From Hysterangium stoloniferum (taxonomy: Eukaryota; Basidiomycota; Agaricomycetes; Hysterangiales; Hysterangiaceae), in NCBI GenBank assembly GCA_015178975.1, contig WHVD01000034.1, positions 248,001 to 312,000 on the forward strand: a stretch of 64,000 bases of DNA, written 5' to 3'. The position numbers were made by a program, and so were the translations under genes. Under the pieces are notes generated by a model. That model ran no database searches, was not told the origin of the DNA, and saw nothing but the letters and a program-made list of their open reading frames with translations. The first letter of the stretch is position 1. The number at the start of each line of letters is the position of its first letter. Shown one piece after another: positions 1 to 21,210 of the stretch.

Positions 1-2495
1 TATTTCCTGGATTCCCCAACATCAGGACATTATGTGCCGAGTATGTGTGACTTACACGATTTTATGGCATATAAAAATCTGAAGAAAATCCAAATGGTGA
101 ATGGCACTTATATTTATGCCAGAGGTATTGCAACATTGCATTTCAAGGTTACAAAACATGGACTGGAGTTTATAGGTGAAATTCCCAACATCGAATGAAC
201 TCCAGAAGTTAAGGTGCCACTCCTTAATCCCATGCAGTTTTTCAAGGATGGATATCACATTATATTGAGCAAAACTGGTTCTACAATTGTCGATTCATCA
301 GGCCGCACACTCATTGAGGTGAATGAGAGGGGTAATGTATACCCTTTCCAGCTGGATACAATTTCCGTGTCACCACCAGTATGCAAATATACGAATTTAT
401 CAGATGATGAATTACAAAATAGGTTGGAAGATGTACCTATGATGTTTTCCGTGAGTTCATCATGTAATATTATGTGATGGCATCAGTGTTTGGGGCATTT
501 GAGTACAAATGCTACTAGAAATCTTGCGTGACATTTTGCAACTGGGATGGAAATCGAAGAAATTGAAGGTTTTGAAGCTGACTGCATTGCATGTATTGAG
601 GGTAAACAGCATAGAAACCCATTCAAAACTGGACGTACCAGAGTGACGAAGTTGGGAGAATTACTCCATATGGATCTTGCCAGACCTATGGAAACGATAA
701 GTTTTGACAAAAAGCGTTATTTCATTATTATTGTTGACAACTTCTCCCATGCTGTATGGGTTGAAACATTAGCAAGTAAGCTGGAAGTGGTGTGCAAAAT
801 AAAGGAATATATAACTCAACTGGAGACGTTTTCAATATGAAGGTCCAGGGAGTTATGACAGATAATGGAACCAAGCTAATAAATTTGGAATTTAGAAGGT
901 ATCTGTTATCAAAAGGTATAGCTTTATTTACCTGGGTGCCATATATGCCACAGCAAAATGGTGTTGCAGAAAGAGGTATACACACCATTACAGAAGGGGC
1001 AAGAACAATGTTATATGTGACAAAAATAGCGGAAGGTGCACGAAACTTACTATATGCATCAAAACTTCCCAAATTCTTGTGGTTGATCGTGGTCAAAATG
1101 ATGGCATATTTGAGGAAGCGGAGTCCATCATGTGCAAACAATGGACATACGCCTCTTGAACGAATAACTGGAGAAAAGCCAGATTTATCACATTTGTGGA
1201 TATTTGGAAGTCCAGTTAGCATGGCAGTTCCTAAGCAAAGACGTCAGAAGTGGGACTCATGTTCAAAGATGGGTTATATGGTTGGGTATGAACCGTATTC
1301 ATTGGATATTTAGTGTGGTTCCCTGGAATGAGAAGGATCAAAAAGTATGAGATGTGATATTCCATGGAGATGTGATGAATTTGCCATCACCGGTGCCTTA
1401 TGGAGATGAAGGTCAATTCAGGGATATAAATAGTGTACCTCCTATCCAACCTGGGAGTGAGCCTCAACCTAGACTCACGATCCATATCCCACCTCGTCCT
1501 CGACCTATTGAAGAAAAAGAGGAGACTATGATGAGGGAACAGTCTCAATTAGTGTCAAACATACCTGACTATCCTCGTGGAATAACAAGATCTGGTAAAG
1601 TATGAGAAGGAATTCAAAGTTCATTGTCAGTCAAAGAAAAAGAATTAGAAGATTCTAATGTACTGGTTGTTTTCTCGACTTTGGGCAATCCAACAATAGA
1701 GGAGGCATTGAATATGCCGGGAGATGAAGGATTAGCTTGGGAAGAAGCTAGACAGGCGGAGTGGAAGAATATGGGAGAACATAACGTATTTGGCACACCT
1801 GAAGAACTGTCACCAGGAACATGTGTTTTAAAAACTGGAACGGTGTGTTGTGGATCGTACAAGAATGGCAAACTAATAAAAAGGAAAGTATGAATCGTCA
1901 TAAAAGGATTTAGTCAATTCCTGGATTACATTTTAATGAAACATACACACCAGTCATGAAGTGGGAAACGTTCCAAATTTTACTGGCACTGGGAGCAATA
2001 ACAAATTCAGCTATACATCAATTCAATGTCAAATCGGCATACTTACATGGGATGATGAAAGAAAAGGTTTGGGTTCAACAACCGGAGGGGTTTGAAGAAC
2101 CTGGAAAGGAGAATTCAGCATTACCGTTATTGAAGGCTCTATATGGAACAAAACAGGGAGGCAATGAGTGGAGAAAAACACTATATGATTTTATGGTTAA
2201 AGAACTCACCTGGTTCTGTTCCGATTTTGACAGTGCTACATTCTTCAAAATATGGGATGATGGAAGCTGGGCCATAGTTGCATTTTGGGTGGATGATGCA
2301 ACTGCTGTAGGTGATGAAAAACGGCTTCTAGACCTCAAAAAGGCATTTTATGAACGATTTGGAATTTCGAGCGAAGGTGAGGCCCATTGGATATTGGGAA
2401 TGAGTATCTGTCAAGATGCTGAATTGAAATCAGCATTCATATTGCAGAAAGAGTATATCGAAAATATAGCAAAGAAGTTCAATGTACAAAATTCC
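1..2495 (+). pseudogene. Ty1/copia pol relic, 5' part (protease to reverse transcriptase)
   Basis: Several plus-strand frames together read as a copia polyprotein. A degenerate protease-like stretch is at the left edge (LDSPTS where DSGAT-type motifs are usual). The pre-integrase finger follows at about 480-610 (HQCLGH, then CIAC). The integrase core is at about 660-1000 (HMDLARPM, TDNGTK, NGVAERG, giving D, D and E). Reverse transcriptase is at about 1990-2490 (QFNVKSAYLHG, ALYGTKQ, FWVDDATAVGD). Many stops and frameshifts interrupt it, so it is dead. The element starts left of the window. The frame resumes at 3079 once the inserted solo LTR is skipped. Confidence 0.85.
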
Positions 2496-3078
2496 TGTTA
2501 AGTGCCGTGTCGGGAACTTATTCCGGAACTATCGGAAAGTCACCGGGAAGTCAGAAACTCATGGATAGGGTCAGGAGGTCGGCTTCAGCTTATGTGCTGC
2601 GCCTCTACGCAAACGCTCAATGTCCTTAATTTCGGAAGTGAACTAACGACGGAAGATATGGATATTCAGAGTTCCGAAGAGTTCTGAATATCAAGCGTAC
2701 AGAAAGACGGGAGGAGGAATAAGAAACTAAGTCGATATCAGATCTAAAGTAAAGTACAAATTTGCGGAAACTAATATAAGTCTACTCGTTATTGTACTAC
2801 AAACTGAGACCATAATAAGACGGAAACGGAAGTATTCTTAAAACGGAAATACAATAAGACATATTAGGAAGACAATATTCCGAGATGGGAATACAACAAC
2901 AAACGAGTGAATACTTGTCAATGGACAAATTACCAAATGTGGAACAAGGGAAGAATGCGGATGATACGGTAACTATGATGTTCCGTAGTCGGAGGTCAAA
3001 GTCGGAAGTCGGGGATCGGAAGTCGGGAGTGGGAGACTGGAAGTCGGATATTGAAACATCCGGGAACGGGTCGTAACA
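2496..3078. mobile_element. Solo LTR, family LTR-A (583 bp), TSD ATTCC
   Basis: It begins TGTTAAGTGCC and ends GGGTCGTAACA, and is flanked by ATTCC at 2491-2495 and 3079-3083. It interrupts copia reverse transcriptase in frame. It belongs to the same family as the LTRs of the full-length gypsy element at 11993-19434. It carries an extra run of GTCGGAAGTCGG-like units near 2995-3050 that those 544-bp LTRs lack; the copy at 50557 has the same extra units, so the two form a longer subfamily. Confidence 0.93.
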
Positions 3079-3851
3079 ATTCCAAACCAATCTGAACTCC
3101 CATATCACTTGGAATTGATTTCGCCTCTATTATTCGCCCAGATACTAAAGAAGAACAAAATGAAATTGTGGAATTGCCTTATTGCAAACTTACTGGAAGT
3201 TTGATGTTTGCAGCTACAGTATCGCATCCAGATATCATGTATTCTGTTAAAGAATTATCTCAATATTCATCAAAACCTGTGAGAATGCATTGGAACTTAG
3301 CTAAGCGTATCCTGCAATATTTATACATGACTTGCGATTTTGAGCTTCGATTGGGAGGACAAGCTCTTTGTCTGCATGGATATTCAGAAGCCGATTTCGC
3401 AGGAGATCAAGAGGATAGACATTCAACAGGAGGATATGTGATCTTTTTAGGTTCAGGAGCGGTATCTTGGTCTTCGAGGAAGCAATCAACAGTCGCCCTT
3501 TCATCCACAGAAGTGGAATATATTGCGCTTTTGGAAGCAGCTTGTGAAATTATGTGGACACGTCATTTCCTCAAAGAACTCAATATAATATATGAAGAAC
3601 CGATGGCAATTTTCGAAGACAATCAAGGTACAATCGCATTCCCTCAAAACCAATGTGCTTTGTGAAGGATGAAACATATTGAAGTAAAATATCATTTCAT
3701 TTGTCATTTGATTGAAAATGGCACTATCCAACTCATATATCGATCGACCAAACAAATGATTGCAGATATTTTAGCGAAATCTCTTTCTTCACCAATTCAT
3801 TACCATCACACAGGACATTTAGGACTTACTTCTTCAAAGCTCGAGGAGGAG
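3079..3851 (+). pseudogene. Ty1/copia pol relic, 3' part (RT end and RNase H)
   Basis: This continues the relic at 1-2495 after the solo LTR. It contains LPYCKLTGSLMFAATVSHPD (end of RT/connection) and the copia RNase H motifs YSEADFAGDQEDR, GGYVIFLGSGAVSWSS, KQSTVALSSTEVEYIAL and FEDNQGTIAF. One stop lies near 3663, after which HIEVKYHFICHLIENG and ADILAKSL complete the usual C-terminus. It is non-functional. Confidence 0.85.
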
Positions 3852-8989: not shown

Positions 8990-11215
8990 GGAAGATTTGG
9001 ATATTTTTGATGAAATTCTAGGATAAGGTTGAAAGCATGTTCAAGATCTTGAGATCCTAACCAAGAAGTTTCTTCATTTGTCCCTTCATATCCTAACCAA
9101 GCAACTAAATATCGGAATGAGTCCTTGTATCTTTTGTTGAATTTTGAATCCAAAATTTCTTGAATTTCATATTTGGGTTCCTCTTCAACATCAATTGGTG
9201 GGGGAGGTGGTTGTTTTCAATTTGGGAAAGTATTGGGATAAAATGGTTCTAACATAGAGACATGAAATATGGGGTGAATTCCTTTGAGATGATTGGGGAG
9301 TTTTAATGTATACAAATGAGATCTGGGTTGAGTGATGATTTTGAAAGGACCTAATAATTGTTCTGATAGTTTTTTTGAGGGTCGAGTTGTTCAAATAAAG
9401 TTGGACCATATGAAAACTTGAGAATGAATTGGAAAAGTGATTGCTTCTTTTTGATGTATGTATGTATGTCAGCATATTTTTGATAATGTAATTGAGCTTT
9501 CTGGATATTTGATTTGAGATGTTTATAAAGCTTCAAGATCTGCCATATAATCATGAGTGAGAGTGGAAGCTAGATCTTTTTCAGAGTAAATTTCTAACAA
9601 TGGATGATAACATTTATTAGCAAAAAATGGCATTTCACCAGTTGTTTTGGAAGGTGCATTGTTATAAGTGAATTTGGCTAGAGGAAGTAATTCTGCCCAA
9701 TTGTCTTGTTGATAATTGCAATATATTTGTAAATATTGTTTGAGGACTGTTAAGAACTGAAAACTGACTAATGTCAGTAGGCCGATGGGGACCGATCAGA
9801 AGGACTTGGCTTCAAGTTATATGCTGCACTCTCACAAGTAACCGTCAGGTGTCCTTAAATTTTGGATGGGCAAAGACTAGTCCTAATGAGTACCTCATGG
9901 TGAGTTACTGATTGGGACCAAAGGATAAGTTGAGTGTCGGGCCAAGGGGGTTGGGGACCAAGAGTGGGCAAGTGCATGCAAAGGCAGAGAGTGGGATACT
10001 TAGAGTAAGACTTCTAGAGATGTATGTGGGTGTTCTGAGTCGACGTTCTGATTGCCTAGTAACTACAGCTACAGCGGGTTCATATACAAGTTATCGGCAT
10101 CTAGAAAATACTAACTAAGGAAGGAGCAGAAACATTATTTGACAAATAAACCTGACTAGGAACAGGAAGGTTACAATAAGTTCGGAGGCCGTAATTAACT
10201 GAGAGCAGGATTACAAGAAAAGGAAATAGTCTGAGGGTTACAAGTATATGTAGGCATATGAAACATAGAGTAGAACGGATCATCATAATAAAAAGGGACA
10301 TATCAGAGTATAACCAGATAGTATGAGTATATTTTGATGGGGGCATAAACAGGGTTTGATTACTGTGAAAGCATACGTCAGCATCGGGTGACCGATGGTT
10401 TCTGATGTGATGACTTGATTGATAACTTGAAACATCGATAGGTGGAAATAACCTCGGGGACCATCGGGTTGTGACACAGTTGTAACAGTTTGATTGACTT
10501 GTTCAGTTTGTCAATCACCTTCAGGATGATATCCTGAAGTGAAATGTCATTTCATGTTGAGGGCTGTTCCGAGAGATCAAAAGAAATGTGATACAAATTC
10601 GGATCCTCAATTGGAGGTTACATGACTTGGAACTCCATGTTTTGAAAAGACATGTAATATGAAAGGTTGAGTGAGTTCGGGAGTATTGATCATAGTATAA
10701 GTTGGAATGAATATTGCTTGTTTTGATAGTTGGTCAACAATTATGAGTATTGAGTTGTAACCACTAGAGGTCAGTAATTGTTTGATAAAATCCATTGAGA
10801 TCAAATGCCATGGTCAAAGAGGGATTGGAAGTTGCTTAAGTAATTCAATGGGTTGATGTTGTGGAGTTTTTGATTTTGTACATGTCACACATAATCAAAT
10901 AATATCTTGTTGAAGTTGTGGCCAAAAGAAATCTCAATATATTGTTTGATACATTTTCATTTGTCCAAAATGACCAGCAGTAATATGATTGTGTCTTGAT
11001 TGAAGAATTCAGAGTTGAATATTTTGATAATCAGGAACATAATCTGTTTTGAAAACATAAAAAGTCTTGTTCATTTCATTGCCAATCTTCTTTGACATTG
11101 TTGGAAGTCTGTCAAATTTTGTCAAGAGTGAATTGATCTTCTTTTTGAGCATTCAATATATATTTTAATAGTTGATCAGTGTCCATAACGAAAGTAGCTT
11201 TTCTTGCTATTGAAA
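8990..11215 (-). pseudogene. Older Ty3/gypsy relic: integrase and chromodomain
   Basis: Minus-strand translation is homologous to the full-length element. The chromodomain region is at about 8990-9210, the post-integrase linker at 9240-9650, the integrase at 9660-9747 and 10488-10900 (MISMDFIKQLLTSSGYNSIL, KHGVPSHVTS), and the HHCC finger region and RNase H-IN linker at 10880-11215. LTR-C (9748-10487) splits the integrase. The sequence is AT-rich and CpG-poor with many stops. The upstream RT/gag part is not adjacent; a similar relic carrying gag-RT lies at 32.2-36.6 kb in plus orientation. Confidence 0.8.
9748..10487. mobile_element. LTR-C copy 1 (about 740 bp)
   Basis: It begins TGTTAAGAACTG and ends CAGTTGTAACA. 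It is inserted in the integrase relic, which resumes on its right (compare TTTGTCAATCACC at 10507 with the equivalent bases at about 14745). No matching 5-bp duplication is visible (AGGAC left, GTTTG right). Related copies occur at 34832-36137 and, inverted and truncated, at about 19600-20253. Confidence 0.8.
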
Positions 11216-11362: not shown

Positions 11363-11992
11363 TGTGAAGAGTCGATAGATTCTGACCGCTCGATATATGA
11401 GGAATAGTGTTTATTCAACTACTATTAATAAGTATTGACCGTTCGGTACAATACTGTAGGGTACTAGACTGACAGTACTAGTAGAGAAGCATGCTACACG
11501 TCACTAGAGCAACTGTGCAGTTGCTTGTGACAGTTGAATAAGAGAATAATAGAGTTGACCGTTGCAGTACAACTCACAGCAAGAGGTAAGAAAGGTAATC
11601 AGCGAAAGATAGAGTATCTGGAATAGAATGAGAGAAGTGCGAGTCAACCAGTGTCGACGAGTGCAAAGACTTGGATGAGGGACTTGACCTTTACGGTTTG
11701 AGTCCAGAGCTTATTAGTAGGTTAGAAAATACTACCCTTGTAGGTAGATGAGACGTTACTCTTGACACCTCTCGCTATTCAACTTCTGGGTCATTACGAG
11801 GTGGTGTCTGTTGGGTAAAGAAAGGTTTTCTGTTTTGGCACTGAGAATGCCCATAGATATACACAAAGCTTTGAACTAAGAAATAATGGTATGCTCGAAA
11901 AATATAAAGAATTAAAGAAAAGAAATAAAAGCAGATAATAAGGTACTATAATATGTCTAGTATCAACAGTCAAATCATGATATATGCATACC
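11363..11992. mobile_element. LTR-B, left LTR of element B, interrupted by the gypsy insertion
   Basis: It starts TGTGAAGAGTCG at 11363. Its last bases lie beyond the nested gypsy element at 19440-19446 (CTTCACA after the duplicated ATACC), giving a 637-bp LTR with TGTGAAG...CTTCACA ends. A second copy starts at 30471 in the same orientation and a reversed fragment is at 40931-41488. Right of 19446 lies GTGCCCCCCAG, the complement of a G-rich polypurine tract, so this is the 3' LTR of a minus-strand element. Confidence 0.82.
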
Positions 11993-12536
11993 TGTTAAGT
12001 GCCGTGTCGGGAACTTATTCCGGAACTATCGGAAAGTCACCGGGAAGTTGGGAACTATCGGATAGGGTCAGGACGTCGGCTTCAGCTTATGTGCTGCACC
12101 TCTATGCAAACTCTCAAAGTCCTTAATTTCAGAAATGAGACTTACGATGGAAGATATGGATATTCAGAGTTCCAAAGAGTTCTGAATATCGAGCGTACAG
12201 AAAGATGGAAGAAGGAATAAGAAACTAAGTCGATATCAGATCTAAGGTAAAGTACAAATTCGTGGAAACTAATATAAGTCTTCTCGTTATTGTACTACAA
12301 ACTAAGACCATAATAAGATGGAAACGGAAATAATCTTAAAACGGAAATACAATAAGACATATCAGGAAGACAATATTCTGAAACGGGAATATAACAAACA
12401 AACGAGTGAATACTTGTCAACAGACAAATTACCAAATGCGGAACAAGGGAAGAATGTGGAAGATACAGTAACTATGATGTTCTGTAGTTGGAGATCAGAA
12501 GTCGGATATTGAAACATCCGGGAACGGGTCGTAACA
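11993..12536 (-). repeat. 3' LTR of the full-length gypsy element (LTR-A)
   Basis: It is 544 bp with TGTTA/TAACA ends. It contains the module GGCTTCAGCTTATGTGCTGC at about 12078. The two LTRs differ mostly by C/T and G/A changes, for example CCGTGTCGG here against CCATGTTGG in the 5' LTR. Confidence 0.95.
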
Positions 12537-12547
12537 GTACCCCCCTG
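12537..12547 (-). promoter_or_regulatory. Polypurine tract next to the 3' LTR
   Basis: The plus strand reads GTACCCCCCTG, so the element strand is a G-run directly before the 3' LTR, the usual primer for plus-strand DNA synthesis in LTR elements. Confidence 0.75.
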
Positions 12548-12664
12548 TTAGGCCGAAATCCCATAGAGGCGATTAGGTACTGAGTGATTGAAGCGACGGC
12601 TGATTATTATGTGTCGTGAAATTTATGCAATTCTGGAGGTGAGAGTTTCGGCTGATGTTCTGAG

Positions 12665-12672
12665 TATAAAAA
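12665..12672 (+). promoter_or_regulatory. TATA-like box of the opposite-strand accessory gene
   Basis: TATAAAAA lies 49 bp before the ATG at 12721, within the 184-bp gap between the LTR and the accessory gene. It suggests the gene has its own promoter rather than using the LTR; this is inferred from sequence only. Confidence 0.5.
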
Positions 12673-12720
12673 CCTCCAAATATTCAAATTAACATTTTTG
12701 TTTCTTTATCCACAACTTGT

Positions 12721-13854
12721 ATGTCAATTCGTCGGCCTCTATTCATCACTACCCCAGAAGATTCAGATACCGAAATTGCTGTGCTTCAAAAAATGTCGAA
12801 GGTCGCAGAACTTCAACAAAAACGACAAAGAATGGAGGAGTTGAAGCGACGACAGGAGGAGGAGGAAAAGGCATTGATGAAGGAGTTGAAAGAGGCAGAA
12901 GAGGCAGAAAAACGGGAATTGGAGCGAGTGAAGGCGAAAAAAGACGCATGGATCCAGAAAATGGTGGAGGCTCAGAAAAAGAAGGAAGAGGCGGAAAAAT
13001 TACAGCGGGAGTCAGAGGCGGCGAAGAAACGTGAGGAGATAAGGGAAGGAAAGGTAAGTGCCGTCCATAGATTCCATGGTTTCAACCGATAACCATCGGG
13101 TACAGCGAAAAGCCATGGAGGTGGAGGTAGAGGGAGAAGCTGGACCTTCGAGTCCTAAAGTAAGTGCATCTACAAAAGGCCAATATTTGATTAACTTCCA
13201 GAACAGAAGCCAAAAGTCAAGGCTCCGGAACAGATGGAAGTGGTCCATGAAAATCCGTGTTATCGATGTTCCATATGGACTATGATGTGTTGGAAACAGA
13301 AGGTAAAATGGGGTGGAACTTGCTATCCCTGCGCGGTTCTTAAACTTCCGTGCACTCTCACCTCGAAACGGGTTCCAAAAGGTGAGAAGGCTCAGAAAAC
13401 TAATGATGCGGAAAGTTCGGGAGCAGCCAAAGCTGTGGAAACTGAGGTGCCAAAAACGGATAGTATGGGCATGGAGCTCCTCAAGGACACCGTTGATGTG
13501 TTACTTTTAATTGGGACAGAAGTCATGAAAATGCGGGATACACTAGATTGCCATAATGAAATCCAGGAAAAAGGTTTCCGTTTGTTGATCCAAAACTTCC
13601 AGAGGCAAAACAAATTCCTGGAGAAGGTAATGGTTAGCATCGGTGTGATCACAGTTTCTGAGAGATTTTCCAATAAGGCACGGGAACAGCCTAATGATCC
13701 ATTGGTGGAATGTGTCGAGAAAAGGTGGGAGTCAGGAAATGGGCCGGAAAGTGAAGATGAAGAAGTACAGGATATGGTGGAAAGTGCGGAGATTGCAGAT
13801 GATATGGGAGGAGAAATGGAAGGAGGATTCAGAGTGTCAGAGACTTTAAAATAG
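12721..13854 (+). CDS. Opposite-strand accessory protein of the gypsy element: coiled coil plus Zn2Cys6-like cluster
   Basis: Three exons (12721-13053, 13106-13159, 13207-13854) join in frame with no stop into 344 residues. Introns are 52 and 47 nt with GTAAGT donors and CAG acceptors. Exon 1 (residues 1-111) is a highly charged Lys/Glu coiled coil. Exon 3 carries six cysteines at 13258-13353 spaced C-x2-C-x6-C-x10-C-x2-C-x6-C, which fits the fungal Zn2Cys6 (Gal4-type) cluster. The basic residues usual between the second and third Cys are missing (SIWTMM), so DNA binding is doubtful. A helical stretch and an acidic C-terminus follow. It runs towards gag-pol and ends 93 bp from the chromodomain stop. 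I know no named family for it. A zinc-binding or regulatory role is inference; the preserved frame beside dead gag-pol suggests recent function. Confidence 0.8.
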
Positions 13855-13947
13855 ATGCAAATAAATTTGACTTGTATGATGTCAAAACGAGTGTGATATT
13901 GGAAGTAACGGAGGTGTCAGAAACTGAACAGAAAGAAAACAGAAGGG

Positions 13948-16900
13948 TCAGAGGGATGATAAAGGTCCGGGTTTGCTTGGATAAGCTGTGTGGAAATCAG
14001 TAACAATTTCCATAGCGTGTCCAAGTTCCGTGGCCAATATCCATGAAGTTTCCTCGTCGGTACCTTCATAACCTGCCCATTTGACTAAATAGAGCAATTT
14101 ACAAGTACGTTGGCAATTGTCGATTTTAGAATCCAAAATTTTGGAAACTTCAAATTCGGGTTCTCCGTCAATGATGACTGGAGGGGACGGAGGTTGAATA
14201 CGTTCCAGGATTTTGTTAGGAACACAGGGTTCTAACATGGAAATGTGGAAAACAGGATGAACTGCTCACATACTATTGGGAAGTCAGAGAGTCCATGAGA
14301 GTGAACCAGCTTGTGCTATAATTTCAAAAGGGCCTAAGAATTTCTCAGCGAGTTTTTTAGAAGGTCGGGTAGTACAGAAGAATTGAGCTTTTACAAAAAC
14401 CTGATCACCAATTTTAAAATTAGGAGGTGGGATCCTGTTTTTGTCCGTGGAACGTTGATAATATTCCTGTGCAGAAGAAATAGCTTTCCGAAGTTCTTGA
14501 TGTAATTCATCAAGGTCGGTAATAAATTCTTGAGCTCGGACAGAAGCCAAATCTTGTTCGGAATGTACAGTAAGATTCAGATTATAGCCTTTGTTGGTGA
14601 AAAAGGGAGATATACTGGTAGTTGCATTCGGAGAGTTATTGTAGGCGAATTCCGCGATTGGAAGAAGGGATTTCCAGTTGTCCTGTTGATAATTGCAATA
14701 GATGCGGAGATATTGTTCCAATGTTTGGTTTACATGTTCCATTTGTCCATCACCTTCTGGGTGATAACCTGAGGTGAAGTGTAGTTTCATGTCGAGGGCT
14801 TTCCCGAGGGCCTGGAAGAAATGGGAGATGAACTTGGAGCCTCGATCGGAAGTTACATGAGACGGAAATCCATGTTTGGAAAATACGTGAATAATGAAAA
14901 GTTCCGCTAATTGTAAGGACGTGATTGTATCATGAGTGGGTATGAAAATGCCTTGTTTTGAGAATCGATCCACAACAACTAGAATGGATGTAAAGCCTTC
15001 GGAAGTCGGGAGTTGTTCAATAAAATCCATGGAAATTGAGTTCCAAGGTTTTTCTGGTATCGGGAGTTGCTTGAGAAGGCCGTACGGCTTATGTCTCTGG
15101 GTCTTGGAGCGTAAGCAGGTGGTGCATGACTTACAGAACTGGGTTACGAAATCTCGGAGGTTGTCCAAGTGTATTCTCTACGGGTTAAACCAAGAGTATT
15201 GTTAATGCTGTAATATCTAGAGATCGGATGATCGTGTTTATACTGAAGTATGTGGAGTCGGAGATTGTTGGAATCTGGAATGTAGATACGTCCATCGAGA
15301 CGGATAAAACCTTGAGAGTCTTGTGACCATTGGGGTTGGTCGGGATTATCGGGAACTTCTAAGTGTGGCTTGAGAACCGGATCGCAAGTGAGTGCAGAAA
15401 GGATATCTTGATGTAATTGCTCAATGTCCATAATCATGACGCTACGCATAATTGGATAGTAGAGGGAAGTTGCTCGAATAGATGCGGAAAGTTGTTGTGT
15501 TGTAAAAACCGGTTTCAAGTTATGCAGATTAACAATGGCATAATTACTTTCCCCCTCTTTAGGATAGACATCCCATCGTCGAGTCATGGCATCTGGTTTT
15601 CCACCAAGACGTCCAGGTCGAAAACGGATAATCATGTTGAAAGCAGAAAGGAATTCGGACCAGCGGGCTTGCCAGTGGGTTAAAGGTTTAGTGGTAGAAA
15701 AATATTCAAGATTTTTGTGATCGGTAACAATGTCAACGGGAGTTGTAGAACCTTCGAGATAATGGCACCAATGTTTGAAAGCTTCGAAAATTGCCAAAAG
15801 TTCCTTATCATGAACATCGTAGTTGAGTTCGGACACTTTCAGTGTCCGAGAAAGAAATGCGACCGGATGAATTTCAATGTCAGAATCTTGAATGGAAATA
15901 ATCGCGGCAATTGCATAATCGGAAGCATCAGTTTCCACAATAATCGGAACATCAGGTTTCCAATGGGAAAGAATTGGGGCAGAAGTGAAAGCATTTTTTA
16001 AAGTATGGAAGGTGGAGTGGCATTTGTCATCAAAGACCCATGGTTGAGTTTTACGGGTAAGATGAGTGAGTGGTACTGTAATGTCCGAGTAGTTCCGAAT
16101 AAAATGATGGTAAAAGTTGGCAAAACCTAAAAATGACTGAATGTCCTTGACTTTCCGTGGTTCAGGCCAGTCGCGGACAACTTGAACCTTGGTTTCATCC
16201 ATATGGAGACCATCAGGTCCGATAATGAAACCTAAGTATTCAATAGAATCCATGTCAAAGTAGCATTTTTTACCATTGGTGAAAAGACCGTTTTTACAGA
16301 GTCTTCGGAAAACTTCACAGACCTGTTCATTGTGAAGAGCGGGATCCTCGGAAAATACCAAAATGTCATCCAAATAGACTATAACACATACGTCAAGCAT
16401 GTCAGAAAATATATCATTAACAAAACATTGAAAAGCGGAAGGGGCGTTGGTAACGCCGAACGGCATAACCAACCATTCAAAGGATCCATAGCGAGTCCGA
16501 AAAGCAGTTTTCCATTCATCACCCTTGGCAATTCAGACCAAATGATAGGCGTGTTTGAGGTCTATTTTGGTGTAGATCCGAGGTTTCCGTGGGGCGTCGA
16601 GTAAATTGGTAACGAGTGGAAGTGGATACCTATCTTTCCGTGTGATGGAATTTAATCCTCTGAAATTGACACAGAGTCGAAGGGAGCCATCCTTTTTTCT
16701 GATGAAAAGGATGGGTGCTCCATACAGAGACTTTGAGGGACGGATAAAACCTATTGACAGATGTTCATCCAGGAACTCCCGAATAGACAAAAGTTCCGAT
16801 TGGGATAATGGGTAAATAGGTCCTAATGGAGGGTTTGAACTGAGCTCAATATCAATTTTTAAGTCGTAGGGCCTATGTGGTGCAAGCTGGTCAGCTTTTT

Positions 16901-17630
16901 GCTTACTGAAAATGTCCGCGAAATCATGGTATTTTTCGGGAACTCCTTCCAGGTCGGCTTTTAGCTCAGATAATTCTGGAGTTGCAAAATCCAGATGCTT
17001 CATCAACTTTTAAGCTGATCGAAAAACACTGTGAGCCATCCAGTTTACTTGCCCTAACAAATGCCAAAGCCTTGATGAGAGAGATTTTTGGAGGCACGGA
17101 GGTTTCAGTAGAAGCCAGAGATGCCGCTGATGCCAAAAAGGCATTGGCCGGAAGAGACGCTGCAGGAGGAACCAAAGTGTCGGGAATTCGGAAATTAATA
17201 CTGCCCAATACCCAGTCAATCAACTTATATCGGGTGAGCCAGTTGTATCCAAGAACTACCGAACAGCTAAAGTCCAACTGTGTTACAAAAAAGGTAGCCG
17301 TCTGGGATGTTCCACAAGGGAACCAGATAGACATGTCGCAGGCTTGGGTAATTGCCGTATTGCTAGTGCCGTCAAACAAACGCAAGGAAATTGCAGGAAC
17401 AGAATGGAGTTTCAGATTATGTTTCATGGCAAAGGTGGTATCTACAAAACAGTGTGTGGAGCCGGAATCTATCAGAGCTCAGAATACTAAATTTCCAAGA
17501 AAGTCAGAAACAAGTTTTACAAATAATGAATCGGGATTAGAGAGAGCGGACACATTGAGACGGATAACCTCAGAAACACGGAGAGAGTCAACGCAACCCT
17601 CTGTCCATGCAGATTCCGGAGGGTTGCTTA
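13948..17630 (-). pseudogene. gypsy pol: protease, RT, RNase H, integrase, chromodomain (broken)
   Basis: Protease has DSGST at about 17462 and LGYNWL near 17240. RT has KDGSLRLCVNFRGLNS, VMPFGVTNAPSAFQ and YLDD (16365-16376). RNase H has ETDASDYAI and DHKNLEYF. Integrase has CKSCTTC, SMDFIEQ, SDRGSKF and EHVNQTLE. The chromodomain is at about 14190-14000 (LLYLVKWAGYEGTDEETSW). It is interrupted by TGA codons at 17479, 16533, 14284 and 14266 (minus strand) where homologous frames suggest Arg, and by frameshifts near 17008 and 15160. All catalytic residues I can see remain, so decay is recent. Confidence 0.92.
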
Positions 17631-18856
17631 CTCTTTTTTCGACTCCATGGCGGGTTTTTCCTTGGATGTTGTAGTCATAGTGGAAGTTGCCGCACGGGCC
17701 TTGGAAGAGTTAGATTTAATGGTACAGTCAGAAACATTGTGTCCGCCTTTCCCGCAGAAAGGGCAGAGGTCATTGTCCATACGTCGTTGTTTCTCCTTCG
17801 GGGTGAGTTTTCTGTCGGTACCCAACAAATGGGAAATGTCGGGTTTGTCAGAAGTTGACTGTTTTTTCTTGTTGGATTTCTTGTCTTTCTTCCGGTCGGA
17901 GTTTGATTTGCCAGCAGTAGTGCCAGAGCTGCCGGTGTTATTGCCTGAGTTGTTGCCAGAAGACTTGCTAGTCGACGCCTTGTTATTCTGAGAACGTTCT
18001 GTCAGGTTCTCTTGAGAGATCTCAGCTTTTCGTTCCCAATAATGGGCATTGGATGTTTGAGCTTTAATCTGCATGAGTTGGAGAGTTTTCGGCTTTCCAT
18101 CTTTGCAGATCTCGTCTTTAAGGTGTGATGGAAGTCCCATATAGAAATGGTGTCTGAGGGTGGAATCGTCCCATCCACATTGTGTGGCGAGGGTATTGAA
18201 CTTGAGGAGATAATCAGAAACTCGTTGATTGTCTTTCATCTTGAGAGTCATTAATTCATTTTCCGCTTCGCCGGATTGATCGTAAGGTCCAAAATTAGTT
18301 TCCAGTTCTTCCACAAAAGTGTCCCAGTCATCGAGCCATACGGGTATCTCGTCGGATATTTCAGATAGTCTGGGTTCGAACCAATCTTGAGCGGTATCCT
18401 TGAGATAAGAGAGTGCAAATTGACTTTTCGACTGTTGGATTTAAATGCAGTGGGTCGATCACGGAAACTGAAACAGCATTGGAGAAAGAAATTCTTCAAT
18501 TTTTTCAGATCCTTGCTGGTAAATCATTCCAGTTCTTTGACTCTGGTGCGGGATGATTCTTTACTATCCTCAGCAGATTTCAAGTAGTCAGCAAATTTCA
18601 CAATGGAGTTGATAAACAACATTTCAGTCAGTTCATCAGAAGATTTCTTTTTCGATGTCTCCGGCTGATCTTCTGCTTCGTTGTCGGAAGTGTGGGGAAA
18701 ATTGGGGTCCTTCGTTACCTCAGTAATCTCCTCGGTAACTTCTTCGACTGAAGCTGATGTTGTCGGCTGAATTGGGGTTTCGGATTGAGTGGTGTAAAGT
18801 TGCAACAGGGATTGAAGTTGGGATGGTCCTTCGGCAGCTTTGCATTTGGGAGCCAT
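17628..18856 (-). pseudogene. gypsy gag with CCHC zinc knuckle (broken)
   Basis: It starts MAPKCKAAEGPSQLQ at 18856, 35 bp inside the 5' LTR. The capsid-like region is at about 18500-18060 (WGWDDSTLRHHFYMGLP-type). A Ser/Asn-rich linker is followed by the zinc knuckle CPFCGKGGHNVSDC (about 17723-17766). A TGA at 18524 and a one-base shift near 18436 break it. Gag ends with TAA at 17628 just after a run of six A; the pol frame continues in -1 relative to gag. Confidence 0.9.
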
Positions 18857-18890
18857 GATGAGCGAGTCGCAGAGTTGAGATCTGATATAC

Positions 18891-19434
18891 TGTTAAGTGC
18901 CATGTTGGGAACTTATTCCGGAACTATTGGAAAGTCACCGGGAAGTCAGAAACTATCGGATAGGGTCAGGATGTTGGCTTCAGCTTATGTGCTGCACCTC
19001 TATGCAAACACTCAAAGTCCTTAATTTCAGAAATGAGACTTACGATGGAAGATATGGATATTCAGAGTTCCAAAGAGTTCCGAATATCGAGTGTACAGAA
19101 AGACGGAAAAAGGAATAAGAAATTAAGTCGATATCAGATCTAAGGTAAAGTACAAATTTGCGGAAACTAATATAAGTCTTCTCGTTATTGTACTACAAAC
19201 TAAGACCATAATAAGATGGAAACGGAGATAATCTTAAAACAGAAATACAATAAGACATATCAGGGAGACAATATTCCGAAATGGGAATATAACAAACAAA
19301 CGAGTGAATACTTGTCAACGGACAAATTACCAAATGCGGAACAAGGGAAGAATGCGGAAGATACGGTAACTATGATGTTCCGTAGTTGGAGATCGGAAGT
19401 CGGATATTGAAACATCTGGGAACGGGTCATAACA
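18891..19434 (-). repeat. 5' LTR of the full-length gypsy element (LTR-A)
   Basis: It is 544 bp, the same length as the 3' LTR, and ends next to ATACC (19435-19439). No primer-binding site complementary to a tRNA was recognised in the bases that follow on the element strand. Confidence 0.95.
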
Positions 19435-19599
19435 ATACCCTTCACAGTGCCCCCCAGTTCGAAGGGATGTGCTATACAAGGTGCCAAAGAGCATTTGGGA
19501 CGCCACCCCAAGCTTCCTGTGAGGATCCCCCAAGATCCAAAATGATGTTCTCCCACCATTCCCTTTTCACTCTGAAGGATTTGGCTATTCTCACCTGAG

Positions 19600-20253
19600 C
19601 CAAACCATCAGCATCCCGATGCTGACATATGCTTTTGTGGTGATCAAACTCCGTTTATGCCCATGTCAAAATATACTCGAACAATCTGGTTAAACTTTGA
19701 TATGTCCCTTTTATTATGATGATCCGCTCTATCCTATGTTTCACATATGTCTATATATATTTGTAACCCTCGAACTATTTCCTTTTACCATAATTCCGCT
19801 CTCGGTTATCATCGGCCTCCAAACTAATCATAAACTTCCCATTCCTAGTCAAGCTTATTGTTAATACTGTTTTCCACCCTTCTCCTAGTTAGTATTCTCT
19901 AGACACCTGATACTGTATATGAACCCGCTGTAGTTGTAGTTACTAGGCAATCAGAATATTGACTCAGAACACCCTCTTATGTCTATAGTAATCTCATACT
20001 AAGAATTCCACTATCTGCCTTCACATGTGCTCGCCCCCATTCGGTCCCCGACCCCTTGGCCTGACACTCAACTTATCTCTCGATTCCAATCAGTAGTTCA
20101 CTGAGAGGTATTCATTGAGACTAGTCTTCACCCACCCGAAATTTAAGGACACCTGACAGATAACTGTGAGGGCGCAGCACATAAGCTGAAGCCAAGTCCT
20201 TCCGATCGGTCCCTGTTGGCCAACTGACTTTAGTCAGTTTCCAGTTCTTAACA
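19600..20253. repeat. LTR-C copy 3, inverted and truncated
   Basis: The reverse complement of LTR-C ends CCAGTTCTTAACA at 20253. Homology starts near CCGATGCTGACATATGC (about 19614) and the rest of its 3' end is missing. The stretch at 19458-19600 before it shows nothing recognisable. Confidence 0.7.
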
Positions 20254-20485
20254 GTGAGTAGAGGAGCGTTAGGAAGGGGAGATGGGGATACAGGTAGCGG
20301 AGCAGGAACATGTGGCTGCATAGTGATCTCTGGGGGAGGTGTCAGGCGAGAGCCTCAAGCAAATCTATGAGGCCAGTGATAGAGAAAACACTTGCAGAGT
20401 CTGGGGGCAAACTGTGTGGTTCCACTATGATGTGGAAGAACATAGAGAGTTTAACTTCCTGAGCTGCTCGCACAAAGTTCTCCCC

Positions 20486-20970: not shown

Positions 20971-21210
20971 TTGGGGCGGAGGGAGAGTGTGCTGGGCGGA
21001 GGGAGAGTGTGCTGGGCGGAGGGAGAGTGTGCTGGGCGGAGGGAGAGTGTGCTGGGCGGAGGGAGAGTGTGCTGGGCAGAGGGAGAGTGTGCTGGGCGGA
21101 GGGAGAGTGTGCTGGGCAGAGGGAGAGTGTGCTGGGCGGAGGGAGAGTGTGCTGGGTGGAGGGAGAGTGTGCTGTGTGGAGGGAGAGTGTGCTGGGCGGA
21201 GGATGGGAGG
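20971..21210. repeat. 20-bp minisatellite, about 11.5 units
   Basis: The unit GCTGGGCGGAGGGAGAGTGT is repeated with few changes (CAGA, TGGA and TGTGG variants). The unit is not a multiple of three, yet all frames on both strands are open, so overlapping ORFs here are by-products of the repeat. On the minus strand it would encode a Pro/Ser/Leu-rich 20-residue repeat. Confidence 0.95.

What the first reader, a model, noticed from the sequence alone, without database searches (positions are those of the whole stretch)
12721..13854. Intact, spliced Zn2Cys6-like gene on the opposite strand of a Ty3/gypsy element
A 344-residue gene with two ordinary fungal introns and a TATA-like box lies between the chromodomain and the 3' LTR, transcribed against gag-pol. 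It combines a long charged coiled coil with C-x2-C-x6-C-x10-C-x2-C-x6-C. The frame is open although gag-pol carries five stops and several frameshifts. Because it has introns and faces the wrong way, it cannot be expressed from the genomic RNA as a normal retroelement protein; it needs its own antisense transcript. Opposite-strand ORFs are known in some plant gypsy elements; I know of no named fungal family with this make-up. Possible roles: regulator of element transcription, self-silencing by antisense RNA, or a targeting partner.
Basis: partly seen in the sequence, partly recalled or inferred. Interest (0 to 1): 0.87.

Follow-up and report, generated by a model that had tools for sequence, protein, structure and literature searches.

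The report
Spliced antisense gene in fungal retrotransposon
A repeated, virus-like mobile element in this (probably fungal) genome carries an extra gene that reads backwards, has two introns, and has been kept by natural selection about as strongly as the element's own enzymes, so it very likely makes a protein the element needs.

Summary
The 344-codon gene at 12721-13854 lies antisense between the chromodomain and the 3' LTR of a 7,442-bp Ty3/gypsy element (11993-19434, TSD ATACC). It is a family-wide gene, not a chance frame. Of 150 chromodomain matches scored in the same genome, 126 have it beside them, all 126 convergent. Between 20 copies dN/dS is 0.21, like RT-RNaseH (0.22); four of five off-frames give 1.04-1.32. 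Splice sites are kept while intron interiors drift; retaining an intron breaks the frame in 61 and 62 of 63 copies. TATAAA sits 55-57 nt before the ATG in 51 of 58 copies. Six motif cysteines are kept in 62-63 of 63 copies; two other cysteines vary. Antisense extra genes are known in plants and in fungal Boty (brtn), so the kind is known; conserved introns plus a zinc-cluster-like coiled-coil protein make it a new variant. Pfam's Zn_clus cutoff is not met. Best reading: a self-encoded nuclear regulator of the element. Expression, zinc binding and regulation are inferred, not shown.

The parts
11993..12536 (-). 3' LTR, 544 bp, TG...CA; 94.9% identical to the 5' LTR
11988..11992 (.). target-site duplication ATACC (3' LTR side)
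   Evidence: read from edges printed
19435..19439 (.). target-site duplication ATACC (5' LTR side)
   Evidence: read from edges printed
18891..19434 (-). 5' LTR
12322..12390 (-). three ATTYCCGTTT motifs in the LTR (12381-12390, 12339-12348, 12322-12331), upstream of a TATA in element orientation; candidate regulator sites (suggestive only)
12665..12672 (+). TATA box of the antisense gene, 56 nt before the ATG; within 1 nt of the same place in 51 of 58 copies
12721..13053 (+). exon 1: ATG and long charged coiled-coil-like region (by eye)
13054..13105 (+). intron 1, 52 nt, GTAAGT...CAG, phase 0
13106..13159 (+). exon 2, 54 nt
13160..13206 (+). intron 2, 47 nt, GTAAGT...CAG, phase 0
13207..13854 (+). 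exon 3: six-cysteine cluster, long helix, acidic tail, stop
13258..13353 (+). C-x2-C-x6-C-x10-C-x2-C-x6-C, residues 147-178
13462..13686 (+). predicted 75-residue helix (exon-3 residues 86-160), the most confident part of both models
13948..14238 (-). chromodomain end of pol (PF00385)
14284..15168 (-). integrase (PF00665) and SH3-like part (PF24626)
15144..16472 (-). RT C-terminal part and RNase H
16533..17006 (-). N-terminal RT fragment (PF00078, below the Pfam cutoff)

Best explanation
An accessory gene that belongs to the retrotransposon itself. It is transcribed from its own TATA promoter between the polypurine tract and its ATG, against gag-pol, loses two small introns, and makes a protein of about 340 residues. 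That protein most likely acts in the nucleus as a dimeric zinc-cluster-type DNA-binding regulator of the element's own transcription or copy number. The introns survive retrotransposition because the genomic RNA carries them in reverse, where they cannot be spliced out. Shown here: position, presence in most copies, selection on the protein, selection on splice sites, near-constant TATA spacing, six near-invariant cysteines. Inferred: transcription, splicing, zinc binding, nuclear location, dimerisation, DNA target, regulatory role.
For: 126 of 150 scored chromodomain matches have exon 3 beside them, all 126 on the opposite strand and convergent. dN/dS is 0.214 against 0.219 (RT-RH), 0.312 (IN) and 0.293 (chromo) in the same 20 copies; exon 3 read in four of five other frames gives 1.04-1.32. 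The ratio falls from 0.47 in the closest pair to 0.20 in distant pairs, as for selection before and decay after insertion (49 of 61 rows). Site diversity at codon positions 1/2/3 is 0.100/0.108/0.219 (58 rows). Splice-site diversity 0.036-0.056 against 0.17-0.20 in intron interiors; GT or AG kept in 59-63 of 63, intron retention breaks the frame in 61 and 62 of 63. TATAAA at -55 to -57 in 51 of 58. Motif cysteines in 62-63 of 63, the other two in 13 and 51 of 63. All 16 listed elements with a gag-pol frame of 1000 aa or more have the gene: 14 with exon 3 free of stops, 2 with a damaged copy. Four such elements have LTRs 96.6-98.6% identical; complete spliced frames in 4 of the 6 fetched. A distant homologue, P0001 (41% identity over 71% of the query), keeps all six cysteines at the same spacing. 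The window's LTRs hold twice the CGG/CCG triplets expected (17 against 8.6, sd 2.3), the triplet that Zn2Cys6 proteins bind (recalled).
Against: No RNA evidence was available. Pfam Zn_clus was not reached at cutoff and PDB has no match. The zinc region is low-confidence in both models. The basic residues usual after the second cysteine are few (usual pattern recalled). The CCG motifs vary between copies, mostly at CpG, and pol is also enriched (83 against 64.2, z 2.9). A YTRAY branch-site-like word near the 3' end is found in intron 2 of 63 of 63 rows but in intron 1 of only 18 of 63. Exon 1 indels are mostly not multiples of three (16 of 41 are). The whole-tree codon model gives 0.46, not 0.2. 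Most copies for dN/dS were found through similarity to this protein, which may lower dN; the off-frame controls and four chromodomain-found copies (ratios 0.22-0.44) argue that this is not the cause.
Confidence: 0.5

Rival explanations
1. The protein is a partner of integrase, Gag or the preintegration complex (targeting, nuclear import or assembly) rather than a transcription regulator.
For: Selection as strong as on pol; presence, intact or damaged, in all 16 listed elements with long open gag-pol; a long helix suited to protein contacts. A role like that of retroviral accessory factors, nuclear import included, is discussed for plants in PMC7264820 (passages read).
Against: A separate promoter and antisense transcription are an odd way to make a structural partner in step with gag-pol. 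The chromodomain already gives a targeting module.
Confidence: 0.25
2. The antisense transcript itself, not the protein, limits the element by pairing with the genomic RNA; the reading frame is secondary.
For: The transcript would be complementary to the 3' part of the genomic RNA. Antisense non-coding transcripts are known in other elements (reviewed in PMC7264820, passages read).
Against: Selection acts on amino acids, reading frame and cysteines; an RNA-only role predicts a ratio near 1. Splicing would remove part of the complementarity. A double role is not excluded.
Confidence: 0.08
3. The protein acts on host genes or host silencing (a suppressor of methylation or RNAi) to help the element survive.
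For: Recurrent stops in copies are mainly CGA to TGA, the mark expected of CpG methylation, so the element seems to be under host silencing.
Against: Nothing in the sequence points to such a partner; no Pfam family above cutoff.
Confidence: 0.12
4. A host gene that was recently hit by or carried along with one element, not part of the element.
For: It has introns and a promoter-like box, like a host gene.
Against: 126 places in one orientation beside the chromodomain, some of them duplicated contigs, and evolution like that of pol.
Confidence: 0.02

Closest known systems
Boty-like chromodomain gypsy elements of Botrytis/Sclerotinia with antisense gene brtn (Zhao et al. 2011)
   Same: Fungal gypsy element with gag, RT, IN and CHROMO domains (PMC4227169 passage) and an additional antisense gene between pol and 3' LTR (PMC7264820 section 5).
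   Different: I saw Zhao et al. only as a citation and had no brtn sequence, so homology, introns and motifs could not be compared.
Plant antisense aORF-3R genes: Grande gene23, RIRE2, Retand (TRP28), PvRetro13
   Same: Position, orientation, presence in most copies, conservation like other element proteins, own promoter in Grande (PMC7264820, section 5 and passages); DNA binding predicted for Retand TRP28 (PMC11963269 passages).
   Different: The word 'intron' occurs 0 times in the main text of PMC7264820 and of PMC11963269; the original papers were not seen. Other protein domains. Here two conserved introns and a six-cysteine cluster.
HTLV-1 HBZ and HTLV-2 APH-2
   Same: Works alike in plan: a spliced antisense transcript at the 3' end of a retroelement encoding a regulatory protein (PMC3185765 passages).
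   Different: Starts inside the 3' LTR, bZIP or non-bZIP protein, different protein altogether; no relationship claimed.
Fungal Zn2Cys6 transcription factors (PF00172)
   Same: Cysteine spacing C-x2-C-x6-C-x10-C-x2-C-x6-C and a following helix (family spacing recalled).
   Different: Not shown to reach the Pfam cutoff in any copy scanned; no other transcription-factor domain found by Pfam; few basic residues in the first loop.

Membership tests
Antisense additional ORF of LTR retrotransposons (aORF-3R) | Lies between pol and 3' LTR, antisense | tested here: met
Antisense additional ORF of LTR retrotransposons (aORF-3R) | Present in most copies of the family | tested here: met
   126 of 150 scored chromodomain matches; 2,197 candidates in all, the rest not scored
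Antisense additional ORF of LTR retrotransposons (aORF-3R) | Conserved to a degree like other element proteins | tested here: met
   dN/dS 0.214 against 0.219-0.312
Antisense additional ORF of LTR retrotransposons (aORF-3R) | Antisense transcription | not testable with these tools
   no RNA data; TATA and splice-site conservation only
Boty/brtn | Protein homologous to BRTN | not testable with these tools
   no brtn sequence at hand; Zhao et al. 2011 seen only as a citation
Fungal Zn2Cys6 cluster (PF00172) | Six cysteines in the family spacing, conserved | tested here: met
   family spacing recalled
Fungal Zn2Cys6 cluster (PF00172) | Score at or above the curated cutoff (21 bits) | tested here: not met
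   window copy 10.8 bits against 21; listed for 1 of 27 exon-3 proteins, E 0.32, and 9 of 12 cropped ones, best E 0.06; bit scores of the others were not shown
Fungal Zn2Cys6 cluster (PF00172) | Binuclear zinc fold | tested here: inconclusive
   low confidence in that region; PDB no match
Ty3/gypsy chromovirus | RT-RNaseH-integrase order and a chromodomain | tested here: met
Ty3/gypsy chromovirus | LTRs with 5-bp TSD | tested here: met
   exact in the window and in 3 of 4 other elements, the fourth with one mismatch (read from edges)

The most novel reading that the evidence does not exclude
The element encodes its own zinc-cluster transcription factor from an intron-bearing antisense gene; this factor binds the repeated CCG-containing sites in the U3 of its LTRs and sets the element's expression by copy number, a self-regulating circuit in a fungal retrotransposon comparable in plan to HBZ/Tax control in HTLV.
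Probability: 0.28. Interest if true: 0.82.

Novelty: new variant of a known kind. Interest (0 to 1): 0.66.

Why it matters
Why many retroelements carry antisense genes is an open question; reviewers call the function unknown and ask for spliced antisense transcripts to be looked for (PMC7264820, passages from section 5 and the conclusion). Here a large family gives what that question lacks: strong evidence of protein-level selection, conserved introns that only an antisense transcript can use, a TATA box at near-constant distance and a motif that suggests a biochemical test. It also shows how a retrotransposon can keep introns: reverse orientation protects them. Annotation pipelines may be filing copies of such genes as host zinc-cluster genes (inference).

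Tried and rejected
Chance or overlap ORF: rejected. The gene does not overlap pol, and four of five off-frames give ratios of 1.04-1.32; the one reverse frame with 0.27 probably shares wobble positions with the real frame (inference) and carries 1.66 stops per 100 codons.

Elements without the gene: six chromodomain matches with long open frames absent from the list were fetched; all six carry the gene. Two of the six, L069 (truncated) and L072 (frameshifted), are damaged. Of the 24 chromodomain matches without a listed gene only these two were looked at.

Homologues elsewhere: single-protein search, 398 candidates, none scored. Profile search: one of 6,941 candidates, P0001. Wider profile: only P0001 again, of 1,932. 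IMG/VR: one locus, L075, matching query residues 28-57 only; its ORFs look like those of a phage, and I took it as chance. Bacterial and archaeal species genomes: 94 pattern stretches, no relative. Plasmids: none. The protein database seems to hold few spliced fungal proteins (my impression), so absence says little. The genomic context of P0001 could not be fetched (metagenome scans capped at 0).

Structure: two models, only one long helix region above pLDDT 70; no fold search was run because a lone helix gives meaningless matches.

Literature: searches. The search for Zn2Cys6 with LTR retrotransposon, gypsy and antisense found 0 papers. Most subscription journals are not held, so I do not claim that this is unpublished.

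Rows dropped before counts: L011, L023 (duplicate contig of L022) and L024; these plus L014, L056, L039, L033, L034, L040, L018, L017 and L067 (12 of 61), whose 49 rows were reused; L023; L011, L023, L024 and L069. In one search, 84 of 1,176 pairs fell outside the printed dS bins.

Full report
What is there. The window lies in an unnamed 111-Mb genome (contig C268). A gypsy element on the minus strand spans 11993-19434, with 544-bp LTRs 94.9% identical and a 5-bp target duplication, ATACC, read at both edges. Pfam finds RT, RNase H, integrase, an SH3-like part and a chromodomain in pieces. Between the chromodomain ORF (13948-14238) and the 3' LTR (inner end 12536) lies a plus-strand gene, 12721-13854. 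Joining three exons through two GTAAGT...CAG introns gives 344 residues. Both introns fall between codons.

It is a family-wide gene. Exon 3 has 150 scored matches among 730 candidates in the genome, 73-100% identical, 106 of 150 free of stops. A search with the chromodomain gave 150 scored of 2,197 candidates. Crossing the lists (150 gene places plus 29 further ones), 126 of 150 chromodomain matches have the gene within 1.5 kb, and all 126 are convergent, 122 of them with gaps of 84-131 nt. Of the other 24, two were fetched and have damaged copies of the gene; the remaining 22 were not examined. Counts include some duplicated contigs, for example C148/C469 and C105/C246, so they are not all independent.

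It is under selection as a protein. In 58 rows site diversity is 0.100, 0.108 and 0.219 at codon positions 1, 2 and 3; intron interiors give 0.26 and 0.17. In 20 copies dN/dS is 0.214 for the gene against 0.219 for RT-RNaseH, 0.312 for integrase and 0.293 for the chromodomain. Exon 3 read in other frames gives 1.04-1.32, except one reverse frame at 0.27 that has 1.66 stops per 100 codons. The ratio falls with distance, from 0.47 (1 pair at dS below 0.05) to 0.20 (521 pairs at dS 0.4-0.6); by region it runs from 0.15 to 0.33, with 0.19 for the cysteine cluster. A codon model over the whole tree, where terminal decay should weigh heavily, gives 0.46. Four copies found through the chromodomain, not the gene, give 0.29-0.44 among themselves and 0.22-0.25 against the window. 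The recurrent stops are mainly CGA to TGA, which looks like CpG decay after insertion.

Splicing is under selection. In 63 rows the first intron keeps GT in 60 and AG in 59, the second GT in 63 and AG in 61; retaining intron 1 breaks the frame in 61 and intron 2 in 62. Diversity at donor and acceptor sites is 0.036-0.056 against 0.17-0.20 inside the introns. A YTRAY word near the 3' end is present in intron 2 of 63 of 63 rows but in intron 1 of only 18 of 63. Intron indels are rarely multiples of three (1 of 11 and 0 of 8), exon 3 indels mostly are (6 of 9), exon 1 indels mostly are not (16 of 41), which includes broken copies. Twelve of 67 rows have a complete spliced frame, 334-347 residues long.

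It has its own promoter-like region. TATAAA occurs 55-57 nt before the ATG in 51 of 58 rows, 49 of them at 56. The 180 nt before the ATG vary less (about 0.13) than introns or third positions. So transcription from inside the element, between the polypurine tract and the ATG, is the simplest reading; no RNA was available.

Recent elements keep it. Of the 150 chromodomain matches 16 lie in open frames of 1,000 aa or more; 14 pair with a stop-free exon 3. The other two were fetched: one copy is truncated (L069), one frameshifted (L072). Four elements of this class have LTRs 96.6-98.6% identical; the gene-found full-length copies with two LTRs measured gave 92.5-96.5%.

The protein. N-terminal charged coiled-coil-like region, a basic stretch (PKKPKVK, nuclear-signal-like by eye), six cysteines, a 75-residue helix that is the most confident part of two weak models (mean pLDDT 56.4 and 54.6), and an acidic tail. 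Motif cysteines are kept in 62-63 of 63 rows while the other two are kept in 13 and 51. Pfam Zn_clus appears only weakly: 1 of 27 exon-3 proteins, 9 of 12 cropped clusters, best E 0.06, the window copy at 10.8 bits against a cutoff of 21. No solved structure matches by sequence. So it is zinc-cluster-like, not a tested member of PF00172. One distant homologue was found, P0001, 227 aa, 41% identical over 71% of the query, with the same cysteine spacing. Its first residues end in ...FSQ just where exon 3 begins, as if it were called from inside a retained intron (inference).

How it may work. The genomic RNA carries the introns in reverse, so retrotransposition keeps them; the antisense mRNA is spliced (inferred). 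A zinc-cluster, coiled-coil protein in such a place would fit a regulator of the element. A weak clue: the window's LTRs hold 17 and 18 CGG/CCG triplets against 8.6 and 8.7 expected, and three ATTYCCGTTT motifs stand about 45-115 bp upstream of a TATA (CCGTTT expected 0.38 times). Against it, pol is enriched as well (z 2.9), and copies differ in these motifs, largely at the CpG (35 LTR rows). Rivals are a partner of integrase or Gag, or an anti-silencing protein; an RNA-only role is disfavoured.

Compared with what is known. [quoted passage not shown] Boty domains in PMC4227169, passage). Retand proteins of this sort are predicted to bind DNA (PMC11963269, passages). HTLV HBZ comes from a spliced antisense transcript (PMC3185765, passages). 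The kind is therefore known. As far as the searches named in Tried and rejected go, the two conserved introns and the six-cysteine coiled-coil protein are new, with direct evidence of selection on both. Whether brtn is homologous could not be tested.

Limits. Most copies were found through this protein. Expression and biochemistry are untested.

Noticed in passing
window 13948-15168 against 15144-16472: Synonymous divergence between the same 20 copies is 0.12-0.13 in chromodomain and integrase but 0.27-0.29 in the antisense gene and RT-RNaseH: recombinant (mosaic) elements or extra constraint on that part.
   Followed up: no
window 2494-3083: Diverged LTR-like copy related to the element's LTR (62-100% in pieces), next to a Ty1/copia-like RNase H ORF at 3168-3665 (copia call by eye).
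   Followed up: no
window 9746-10088 and 19914-20255: Inverted repeat arms of 204 and 142 nt, 81-83% complementary, about 10 kb apart on either side of the element; probably copies of a dispersed repeat.
   Followed up: no
window 20974-21202: Tandem array of 11.4 copies of a 20-bp unit, 96% matching.
   Followed up: partly
L021:9240-9799: A second, more diverged partial copy (75% DNA identity) of the antisense gene about 0.75 kb from the first, in opposite orientation.
   Followed up: no
copies of the gene, codons 35, 43, 44, 69, 112: The same CGA codons turned to TGA in 20, 13, 16, 5 and 12 of 58 rows: CpG decay hotspots, consistent with methylation of the element.
   Followed up: partly
window 12597 and 12649: Direct repeat CGGCTGAT twice before the antisense TATA, again at 18662; exact in 30 and 16 of 63 copies.
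   Followed up: partly
G000 contigs C148/C469, C105/C246, C146/C456, C317/C328: Pairs of matches with identical scores on two contigs, probably unmerged haplotypes, so copy counts are somewhat inflated.
   Followed up: no
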